From Nymphaea colorata (taxonomy: Eukaryota > Streptophyta > Magnoliopsida > Nymphaeales > Nymphaeaceae), in the NCBI RefSeq assembly GCF_008831285.2, contig NC_045138.2, positions 34,342,769 to 34,406,768 on the forward strand: 64,000 nucleotides of DNA. Direction: 5' to 3'. This document shows, piece after piece, positions 52,101 through 55,100 of this stretch. Position numbers and translations under genes: made by a program. Below the pieces are notes generated by a model that was not told the DNA's origin, made no database searches, and saw only the letters and a program-made list of their open reading frames with translations. The first letter of the stretch is position 1. Each line of letters opens with the position of its first letter.

Positions 52101-55100
52101 CCTTGGCGACGCACCTGCGTCGACGCGACGCGGGTGCGGCACAGATTCGCACCCAACCCGCACCCTGTTGATACGCCCCTGCGGGCGGCGTAACTCTAGA
52201 GTTAGGAGGCGGGGAGAATCAGAGAGGGAGTCGTCGAGGGGGAGGCGAGGAGAACCTGAAAGCGTCGTCGAGGATGGCAGCCGGCAAAACCTTCAAAACT
52301 GACACAGCCTCAGACGAAGCAGCAGAAGAAGAGTGAGTACTAAGTAGTCAGTGAAGGGGAAGGGTGCACCTTACCCTTCGTCTTGGTGTACAGATTCTTC
52401 ATCCCCAATGGTCTCCGCATCTCCGCTTCAATGGCAGCAGTGACTGAAGAGGGTCTCTGACTCTCTGTGGAGAGTGTGGAGCAGCTAGGGCATCATCGTC
52501 CTGAGCGTGGGGAGGGTGATTTTTCCCCCTTTTCCCCTTTTCTACATATTTTTATAATAATTCTTCTTTCACTCATAGACGAACCTTATGATCTTAATTA
52601 AACAAGTAGGCTTCACTTCCTGAAATTTCCAAAAAACAACTATTTTTTAACACATCTCAAACATGGGCCTCAAGTAAAAGTTCAACTTCCCAAAATATGG
52701 GTATCCTTACAGCCATATGGTCCTTTTCTTTACTGTTTACTCAATAAAACATTAAGGCGCTATTTATTCTTCATTTTAAATTGATTAAATTTGTGACCTA
52801 GACGACTTTTATTTAAGACTGGGCACCGGGCCGCGCCACCGCCGGGTACCCGGTACCCGGCCCGTTATGGGCCTGGGCCCTGGCCTTGAAATAATGATTT
52901 TCGGGCTGAGGCTAACGGGCTCGGCCCAGACCGGTAATTAACGGGTCGGGCTCGGGCCTGCCGTTGTGATCGTCGGCGGCCCAAGAAGCTCGATATGATT
53001 TTTTTTTCCAAAAAACTCAATGTTAGCAACTTAGCTGGTTAGGGTCCCCGCCCCCTCATTCAAGGATGTGTGAGAGGTTGAGGTATCTAAGCGACGCGCA
53101 CTGCCCGAGGTATGCTGGAATCGATCTGCTAAAGGTCTTGCCAGAGAGATCGAGGGAACCGAGGGCCGTGAGCGAGGGGAAGTGTGGGTACAACATCCCC
53201 TGCGTTTGCGGCGTGAAGTTGGAGAGGTCGATCCCGGTGACCCTGCATCCCGTGCACACGATCTCCAACCAGCCGCAAGGCGAAGCATCGCCCTCGGTCA
53301 ACTGGTCATACTTCCCCTGATGCGCGGCGTTGTTTCGTTGGAGGAACTGCTTGAGGTCGATCAGCGTATCCTTGTCCGACTGAAGAGAACTCCCATCCAC
53401 GACCACCACGGCGACGAAGATGAGCAGCACGAAGCCGATGAGCTGTCGCAAGAACACATGGCCATTCCCCTATATCTCTCCACCCCTGTGGGTCATCTAA
53501 AAACCGCTACAACTTAAGCCTCTATTTCTGTGTGTCGCCGGCGATCTTCTCCGCCTCCTTACCCCTCGCTTTTCTTCTGCTGCACCGGTGCCAAGCTCAC
53601 TTGTCTCCCTCCCTGTGTTCTTCAACTCCTTTAACCTGAAAAAGCCCAGCCCGACCTGTTAATAATCGGGTCGGGCCGGGCCTCGGGCATAAGTCGAAGC
53701 CCGAGGCCGGATAATGGGCCGGCCCGGCCCGGCCCGATGCCCAGCCTTAGCCTTACTTTTATTCAGACAGGCAACACCACTATCCGTTTGTAAAGTATGA
53801 CTCATAAAAGATTGGCAAATAACATAAATGGGTTAAACTCAACCAACTGCAATTCAATATATACATATTAGTATGATCAAACTTGAGATACCATCGCTTC
53901 CATCGACACTTGAGAGAGAAAGAAAGTGATGTTAATTTTTTTTACATAAATACCCTCGCCGCACCGCCACACCACAATTTTTTGAGATGTATCGCACCGA
54001 CACCGACACCCTATGCACTGGTGACATAGATTAGTACACCTCTCACTCTCTCTCTCTCTCCACCCCCTTCCCCACAAAAGGGAAGAGAAAAGAAAAATCA
54101 CATGACACTGAAAGGGAGCTAAGGCTACAAAAAACTTGGTGTTGGACAATGATCTATGATGTCAACCATCTGCAGAATTGCTTATTCAAGAAAGGCTGAC
54201 CATATCTTCGATCAGCAAGCCATAGGATCATGCACAAAGGGAATTGAGAGTAAGTCATTAAATGCTTTTAAAAAATAGACAACAGAGTGTGATAACTAAA
54301 TGTGTCCCATATTTGAAGTTTGATCGGCTTCATGCACGAAGGGAATTGAGAGCAAGTCATTAAATGCTTTTAAAAAATAGACAACAGAGTGTGATAACTA
54401 ACTGTGTCCCATATTTGAAGTTTGATCGGCTTGTTGTCAATATTTATCATCCTAGCACCAAATTCAACACCGATTGTCAAGTCATGCACAGGTTGGAAAC
54501 GTTTGTCAGTGAACTGCAGGAGAAGGCATGATTTACCAACACCTGTAAGAACATGACAAAATAGATCTTCATCAACATAGCATATTATCGGCTATCAGTT
54601 CAATAAAAATAGATACATCAGACAGTTAAAAAAATGTAAATGAGAGAAGCAAAATTATAATATAAGAAGACATACATAAATCATGAATCAAGAATTACAC
54701 CCGCCTAGTGAATCTACCTACATTATAAATAATAGATAGGAAAATTCCACAAAAGTGAACACAGATAAAATATTTATTGTTGAAATGTTAAAGAGGTGCA
54801 GATAGCATAGGGATCCACATCCAACCATCCTCCTAGGGCTCGATTTGAGTATGCACATTACACATAGTAATGAAGTTTGCAATGTTCAATAGCCAACCCA
54901 GGACAATGGGTTGATTAATTCTATGAGCCCTCTTATATTTTCCAGAACAAGAGAAACCCATATCCTATTATGGAAAAGTCAGAACTTAAAGCCAACAAAT
55001 GTCAGTGTACTTGAGAAGAGAAAATGTTGGAATATCAATGATGACAGAGAATGAAAAAGGACAAACAAACACTCATTTCCTAATGCTTCCCCGTTTAGTT

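What the first reader, a model, noticed from the sequence alone, without database searches (positions are those of the whole stretch)
52814..53755. Gene-capturing hAT-type element with an LRR receptor kinase 5' fragment
A 942-bp element with near-matching termini and a perfect 8-bp target duplication (CTTTTATT) carries an open 133-codon fragment with signal peptide, LRR cap and two LRRs on the - strand, between GGGCC-rich subterminal regions. Pack-type capture is best known for Mutator, CACTA and Helitron elements and is less often described for hAT. The fragment could yield a secreted decoy ectodomain or small RNAs against the parent gene.
Basis: partly seen in the sequence, partly recalled or inferred. 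Interest (0 to 1): 0.72.

Follow-up and report, generated by a model that had tools for sequence, protein, structure and literature searches.

The report
Gene-capturing hAT transposon in plant intron
A jumping gene in a plant genome picked up the beginning of an immune-type receptor gene, copied it to other places, and shed a smaller offspring that copied itself further; the captured piece in this copy is broken, and the element is a well-documented example of a known kind.

Summary
Window 52814-53755 is a non-autonomous hAT element with inverted ends and a perfect 8-bp duplication, carrying the upstream region and first ~134 codons of an LRR receptor kinase. The window's own genome shows two more copies with the same insert and their own perfect 8-bp duplications, and an intact 1105-residue parent gene without the GGGCC-rich arms. 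Seven 5.0-5.9-kb elements have matching ends and duplications; two of three frames scanned carry all three hAT transposase domains. The parent has the Cx25Cx16C island of the At1g74360 (NILR1) type. A deletion derivative of the carrier became a MITE with at least 17 copies that keeps pieces of the receptor gene. A decoy from this copy is not supported: a 2-nt insertion puts the start codon out of frame; one other copy has early stops, the third keeps a 120-residue AUG frame. Small-RNA effects are possible by sequence, untested. The element lies sense in a Rab2 intron. Gene capture by hAT has been in print since 2011. New member of a known kind.

The parts
52806..52813 (.). left 8-bp target-site duplication CTTTTATT
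52814..52837 (+). left terminal inverted repeat (tip TAAGACTGGGCACCGG)
52814..53052 (+). left hAT arm, GGGCC-rich; positions 1-176 to 1-232 of the element align with the ends of seven long relatives; its last few bases before the insert are not assigned
53053..53638 (-). captured host DNA: upstream region (taken as 5'UTR, no transcript data) plus first ~134 codons of an LRR receptor kinase, 84% identical to the parent gene at G000:C7:9017734-9021048
53056..53457 (-). open 133-codon frame (GTG start) with signal-peptide-like stretch, LRR N-cap and two LRRs; first in-frame AUG of the frame at codon 88 (53196)
53463..53465 (-). ATG homologous to the parent's start codon, out of frame with the LRR frame because of a 2-nt insertion just after it
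53077..53120 (-). 44 nt of receptor coding sequence retained in the short derivative (element 264-307)
53456..53541 (-). stretch around the start codon and upstream region retained in the short derivative (element 643-728)
53639..53755 (+). right hAT arm, GGGCC-rich, about 100 bp shorter than in copy L002
53726..53749 (-). right terminal inverted repeat (tip TAAGGCTGGGCATCGG)
53750..53755 (.). extra copy of the tip hexamer (GCCTTA), not seen at the other copies with both ends found
53756..53763 (.). right 8-bp target-site duplication CTTTTATT
50999..54402 (-). intron of a Rab2-type GTPase gene (exons 54403-54540 and 50915-50998, GT...AG) that contains the element; receptor fragment and host gene read in the same direction

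Best explanation
It is a Pack-type non-autonomous hAT transposon. An ancestral hAT element kept roughly 0.1-0.24 kb of each end and gained, between them, about 0.59 kb of host DNA copied from the 5' end (upstream region and first ~134 codons) of an intact LRR receptor kinase gene of the At1g74360/NILR1 type. Shown: the ends, the 8-bp duplications, the parent gene, the same insert and junction regions in three copies, and longer relatives with matching ends that encode hAT transposase (BED finger, RNase-H fold, C-terminal dimerisation region). Inferred: that such a transposase moved it in trans, and that the fragment was acquired during repair of a break in the element (template switching or gap filling). 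After capture the element transposed as a unit (three copies found). One descendant lost most of the insert in internal deletions and amplified into a MITE of about 0.4-0.6 kb with at least 17 copies. The window copy inserted into a Rab2 intron and decayed (2-nt insertion after the start codon, loss of one LRR codon, truncated right arm). It most likely makes no protein and does no work for the host beyond being spliced out with the intron.
For: Own-genome search: self plus two copies at 88% and 86% over query 1-910 and 1-909 of 926, and a locus matching only the insert. Perfect, different 8-bp duplications CACATAAC and AGCATATC at the copies. Parent frame of 1105 residues with kinase, LRR and LRRNT_2 domains above Pfam cut-offs. 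Fragment 82% identical to the parent over 114 residues. Next-best match to the parent among those scored (42 of 2758 candidates) is 68%. Seven of 12 extended loci are 4,976-5,872 bp with ends of this kind and at least 7/8 duplication. Two of three frames scanned (L060, L055) carry PF05699, PF14372 and PF02892 above cut-off; L060 matches Hermes transposase structures. Element ends align to those long elements; no alignment of the insert to them passed the threshold. Carriers and MITEs form one group on the left-arm tree (94/97), MITEs 97/92. Intron placement with GT...AG borders.
Against: The mechanism of acquisition is not shown; junctions were compared by eye only. The parent is 84% identical, so the donor may have been a lost sister of this gene. 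Substitutions in the coding part of the three copies are fewer than non-coding rates predict (48 against 70.1, Poisson tail 0.003), which hints at some past constraint, although the share that changes protein is not unusual (28 of 48 against 0.661 expected, p=0.29). Copy L002 keeps an AUG frame of 120 residues. The group of three carriers on the tree is weak (82/73). One of the seven long elements (L057) has a poor right tip (7 mismatches of 20).
Confidence: 0.95

Rival explanations
1. The captured fragment makes a secreted decoy ectodomain that competes with the parent receptor.
For: Signal-peptide-like start, N-cap and two LRRs are present; copy L002 keeps an AUG frame of 120 residues with the parent-like start; coding changes among copies are fewer than non-coding rates predict.
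Against: In the window copy the homologous AUG is out of frame and the LRR frame has no AUG before codon 88. L003 stops after 51 residues and again later. Three copies, three different states. Only two LRRs remain, without the island or most of the ectodomain.
Confidence: 0.03
2. The copies, perhaps also the MITEs, feed small RNAs that act on the parent receptor gene.
For: Of overlapping 21-nt windows compared with the parent on the same strand, the window copy has 12 perfect and 94 with at most one mismatch; L002 22 and 119; L003 19 and 108. Eleven MITEs compared have none perfect and 1 to 13 with at most one mismatch; a shuffled copy has none. Captured sequences in maize Helitrons, Pack-MULEs and Sirevirus elements have been linked to siRNA effects on donor genes (PMC13317346, passages seen; hAT is not named there).
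Against: No small-RNA data here. MITEs share only short, diverged stretches with the parent. Sense orientation inside a Rab2 intron gives no antisense RNA by itself.
Confidence: 0.15
3. It is a Mutator-like (Pack-MULE) element, with the 9-bp flank identity as its target duplication.
For: Flanks are identical over 9 bp, ACTTTTATT.
Against: A 9-bp reading breaks the pairing of the tips; relatives with tips of this kind have 8-bp duplications and hAT transposase.
Confidence: 0.01
4. The LRR fragment is a degraded native gene in place, with the GGGCC-rich ends accidental or later insertions.
For: None found.
Against: Same insert between the same arms with different perfect duplications at two other places; parent lacks the arms.
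Confidence: 0.01

Closest known systems
Ds2 and Ds-l4 elements of maize with gene fragments (PMC3260210; passages and section 19 read)
   Same: Non-autonomous hAT elements, Ds-l4 with a modal length of about 1 kb, that hold fragments of host genes; 2 Ds2 and 9 Ds-l4 such elements reported; capture through genomic DNA
   Different: Other hAT family (11-bp Ac/Ds ends). Here the fragment is the upstream region plus coding start of a receptor kinase, three copies share it, and a MITE descends from the carrier
Pack-hAT elements of rice and maize (PMC8903248; passages and section 8 read)
   Same: hAT ends, 8-nt duplication, host coding DNA between the ends
   Different: Searched with the Bg (maize) and Ac (rice) ends; ends of the kind seen here were not named in what I read
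Pack-TIRs of animals, e.g. Pack-hAT-N8_XT (PMC8277862, passages read)
   Same: A hAT element captured a 291-bp 5'UTR piece and was amplified to three places with distinct duplications
   Different: Animal hosts; no MITE descendant mentioned in the passages seen
StCDF1.3 transposon of potato (PMC12420743, passages read)
   Same: Its tip TAAGGCTGGGCACCGG differs by one base from each tip here; the printed flanks show ACACTAGG on both sides, an 8-bp duplication when the tips are taken as TAAGG; it excises somatically
   Different: 865-nt insertion in another plant family; the paper calls it a Class II TIR transposon, the hAT assignment is my inference; no gene fragment mentioned in the passages seen
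Pack-MULEs (recalled; named in PMC13317346 passages)
   Same: Capture of host gene pieces between inverted ends
   Different: MULE transposase and 9-bp duplications (recalled); not met here

Membership tests
hAT superfamily | 8-bp target-site duplication | tested here: met
hAT superfamily | short terminal inverted repeats shared within the family | tested here: met
   Tips close to TAAGGCTGGGCA or TAAGCCTGGGCA in window, copies, MITEs and long elements, with a few mismatches in some
hAT superfamily | mobilised by a hAT transposase encoded by a related autonomous element | tested here: inconclusive
   Long elements with ends of this kind encode PF05699, PF14372 and PF02892 (L060, L055) and L060 matches Hermes. 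That this transposase moves the window element is inferred, not tested
Pack-TYPE (Pack-hAT) element | host gene sequence between the element's ends | tested here: met
   Element 240-825 aligns to the parent at 84%
Pack-TYPE (Pack-hAT) element | identified donor gene outside any element | tested here: met
   G000:C7:9017734-9021048, arms absent there; it or a lost sister was the donor
Pack-TYPE (Pack-hAT) element | transposed as a unit after capture | tested here: met
   L002 and L003 with own perfect duplications and the same insert
Mutator-like (Pack-MULE) | 9-11-bp target duplication and MULE transposase | tested here: not met
   8 bp across the family; hAT transposase in long relatives
At1g74360 / NILR1 type LRR-RLK (parent gene) | island with Cx25Cx16C between two LRR blocks | tested here: met
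   Cys pattern found once at residues 505-548 of the parent, with LRR-like matches on both sides (101-460 and 609-633); 7 of 2000 shuffles of the protein show the Cys pattern; signature from PMC4030839 (passages)
At1g74360 / NILR1 type LRR-RLK (parent gene) | orthology by phylogeny with named family members | not tested
   No plant protein set at hand; that NILR1 is At1g74360 is from recall and fits the joint search listings

The most novel reading that the evidence does not exclude
A gene-capturing hAT element became the founder of a MITE family, so that pieces of an immune-type receptor gene's 5' end were seeded at 17 or more places; the copies may act on the parent through small RNAs, and copy L002 may still make a 120-residue secreted LRR-cap peptide. 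The founder step (carrier to MITE) is supported by shared joints and the tree; the regulatory step is untested.
Probability: 0.1. Interest if true: 0.6.

Novelty: new member of a known kind. Interest (0 to 1): 0.35.

Why it matters
One genome holds what look like the steps of one history: long transposase-bearing relatives, a parent gene, a capturing derivative in three copies, and a deletion derivative of that carrier that amplified. This makes the order of events (capture first, then internal deletion and MITE burst) testable from sequence. It also shows that a long open frame in a captured fragment says little about coding: the three copies differ in start, frame and stops.

Tried and rejected
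Pfam on the fragment alone is below every curated cut-off (LRR_8 16 against 27 bits, LRRNT_2 11.6 against 20.7), while the parent passes; I used the PDB search (best E 7.1e-24, PEPR1) and then the parent to name it.

Whole-window scan for ends plus 8-bp duplications: not decisive alone (8 of 60 shuffles as good).

Bacterial and archaeal genome contigs: 58 pattern matches, no relative by tblastn. Rfam over the element: six hits, all below the gathering score, taken as chance.

Pairwise dN/dS among the three copies is 0.34-0.54. I did not take this as selection: the coding part is GC-rich at third positions (0.782), so CpG decay can raise synonymous change; the rate-matched test is inconclusive (protein-changing share as expected, total number of coding changes below expectation).

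Inserts of L021, L022, L027 and L023 looked at first like captures of other genes. L023 aligns in large part to a long relative (L057), and L021, L022 and L027 align to it at 71-73% in their left part; I make no claim of further captures, and other inserts between these ends were not searched for in the genome.

A census of the MITE (query L012) and a Pfam PF05699 scan of the genome were attempted many times and never answered.

Full report
What is there. The window element runs from 52814 to 53755 between two copies of CTTTTATT. Its ends are inverted over 24 nt at 88% (52814-52837 and 53726-53749). The right side has six extra bases, a second copy of the tip hexamer, before the duplication; I saw this at none of the other copies with both ends found. 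The GGGCC/GGCCC pentamer occurs 15 times in the 942 bp and 70 times in the whole 64 kb, 13 of the 15 in the two arms.

Is it real. The plain statistics are moderate: an exact 8-bp duplication with slack arises in 257 of 200,000 random pairs, and 8 of 60 shuffled windows hold a pair of ends plus duplication as good. An independent pattern helps: the 16-base tip of the potato StCDF1.3 transposon, printed in PMC12420743 (passages read), occurs in the window twice at up to 3 mismatches, at both tips of the element with 1 mismatch each, against 0.16 expected; 1 of 100 shuffles also reached two. In that paper's patterns the potato insertion is flanked by ACACTAGG on both sides if the tips are taken as TAAGG; the raw overlap printed by the script is 11 nt because tip and flank share letters.

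The genome settles it. After many unanswered attempts, searched the 407.8-Mb genome in which the window lies (G000:C1:34342769-34406768). It found the element itself, two near-full-length copies (C1:7.18 Mb at 88%, C8:2.80 Mb at 86%), one locus that matches only the insert (C7:9.02 Mb, 84%), and many that match only arms or parts. The tool scored 40 of 400 candidates, so counts are lower bounds. The two copies have perfect duplications of their own, CACATAAC and AGCATATC.

The parent gene. L009:1232-4549 (minus) is one open frame of 1105 residues with LRR, LRRNT_2 and kinase domains above Pfam cut-offs. The captured part is element 240-825, window 53053-53638: the stretch upstream of the parent's start codon, which I take as 5'UTR without transcript data, and about its first 134 codons. 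The fragment's protein is 82% identical to the parent over 114 residues. The next-best match to the parent among the candidates scored (42 of 2758) is 68% identical. The parent shows Cx25Cx16C once, at residues 505-548, which PMC4030839 (passages) gives as the island signature of At1g74360 homologues. At1g74360 is NILR1, a receptor linked to immunity against nematodes (PMC5391088, search listing and start of abstract only; the identity of the two names is recalled and fits the joint listings). GGGCC/GGCCC occurs 0 times in the 600 bp on the coding side, 0 times in the captured part and 2 times in the 600 bp on the 5' side, so the arms do not come from the gene.

Family and transposase. Of 39 loci examined, 17 have both ends and a duplication of at least 7 of 8 (16 perfect). 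The other 21 had an end not located or a duplication below 7/8. Twelve of these 21, with a left end, were fetched again with about 5 to 10 kb beyond it: seven are elements of 4,976 to 5,872 bp with ends of this kind and duplications of 8/8 (six) or 7/8 (one); the tips of L057 and L059 are less good. Of three frames scanned, those of L060 and L055 carry the hAT dimerisation region, the hAT RNase-H fold and a BED finger, all above Pfam cut-off; that of L056 shows no dimerisation region. L060 matches two chains named only TRANSPOSASE at 1.4e-17 and two named Hermes transposase at 2.5e-16 and 4.8e-16. The window element's arms align to the ends of these long elements; no alignment of its insert to them passed the threshold.

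A MITE descends from the carrier. In the list, 17 places pair a match to the left arm with a nearby match that starts near query 635. In one search, 15 of 39 loci show the same order of blocks: element 1 to about 194-211, 264-307, 643-728, then right-arm sequence; two more (L020, L035) show part of it, and L025 one block. Eleven of the 15 have a duplication of at least 7/8. The shared joints mean one ancestor with internal deletions, and it still holds 44 nt of receptor coding sequence and part of the upstream region. In ten such elements compared, that 44-nt block is 86-91% identical to the parent and 79-86% to the window copy. On a tree of left arms (30 rows) carriers and MITEs group together (94/97), MITEs form one group (97/92) and the three carriers another (82/73, weak). 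The arm is short, so support is modest.

State of the fragment. In the window copy the parent's start codon is conserved as ATG at 53465-53463 but a 2-nt insertion just after it, absent from parent, L002 and L003, puts the LRR frame out of reach; the LRR frame opens after a stop and its first AUG is at 53196, behind the signal peptide and cap. L002 keeps the start and reads 120 residues to a stop; L003 stops after 51 residues and again further on. Among the three copies 28 of 48 coding changes alter the protein, against 66.1% expected from non-coding rates (p=0.29); the total is lower than expected (48 against 70.1, Poisson tail 0.003). I read this as decay with a possible, unproven period of constraint. 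A decoy from the window copy is not supported. For small RNAs the sequence leaves room: 12 perfect 21-nt windows shared with the parent in the window copy, 22 in L002, 19 in L003, none in the 11 MITEs compared. No expression data were available.

Setting. The element lies in a 3,404-bp intron (50999-54402) of a Rab2-type gene on the minus strand, between the exons 54403-54540 and 50915-50998, with GT and AG at the borders; the joined exon peptide matches Rab-2B best (2.7e-97). The receptor fragment reads in the same direction as this gene.

Known or new. Capture of gene fragments by hAT elements was reported in maize in 2011 (PMC3260210: 2 Ds2 and 9 Ds-l4 elements; passages and section 19), in animals in 2021, including a captured 5'UTR at three places (PMC8277862; passages), in rice and maize as Pack-hAT in 2022 (PMC8903248; passages and section 8), and in fungi (PMC6710886; passages). 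One search for MITE, gene fragment, hAT, internal deletion and captured together gave 3 papers, none about a capturing element turned MITE by title and start of abstract; that is a thin search and no proof of novelty.

Noticed in passing
window 46651-47706 and 55526-56081: Duplicated stretches (about 90-93%) around the first exon of the Rab2 gene; [16 protein letters not shown] recurs at 47106-47153 and a near copy lies around 47677-47691, downstream of the gene's last exon.
   Followed up: partly
window 54228-54432: Two 102-bp tandem copies at 97% beside the Rab2 exon at 54403-54540; the array overlaps the exon's 3' end.
   Followed up: no
window 53750-53755: Tip hexamer TAAGGC doubled at the right end of the window copy, with about 100 bp of the right arm missing compared with L002; perhaps the trace of an aberrant repair.
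   Followed up: partly
window 27342-29001, 32921-33849, 39179-40759: Array of similar stretches on the minus strand; 39179-39619 is a peroxidase by Pfam, 28609-29001 a peroxidase hit just below cut-off, the middle one was not scanned.
   Followed up: no
window 17935-18537 (-) and 21761-22489 (+): LEA_2 genes by Pfam (NDR1/HIN1-like by recall); the frame 14118-14708 gave no Pfam hit.
   Followed up: no
window 61825-63544: Frame with a Myb/SANT-like domain (PF12776) followed by frames without a clear Pfam hit; from recall they may be a PIF/Harbinger-type gene pair.
   Followed up: no
window 59276-59693: 65-bp tandem repeat, 6.5 copies, open in several frames.
   Followed up: no
window 11254-11381 and 11641-11723: Two snoRNAs by Rfam, snoR80 and snoZ157, on the minus strand.
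   Followed up: no
L053, L054, L055, L056, L057, L059, L060: Long hAT relatives of 5.0-5.9 kb; L055 and L060 keep transposase frames of 670 and 681 codons.
   Followed up: partly
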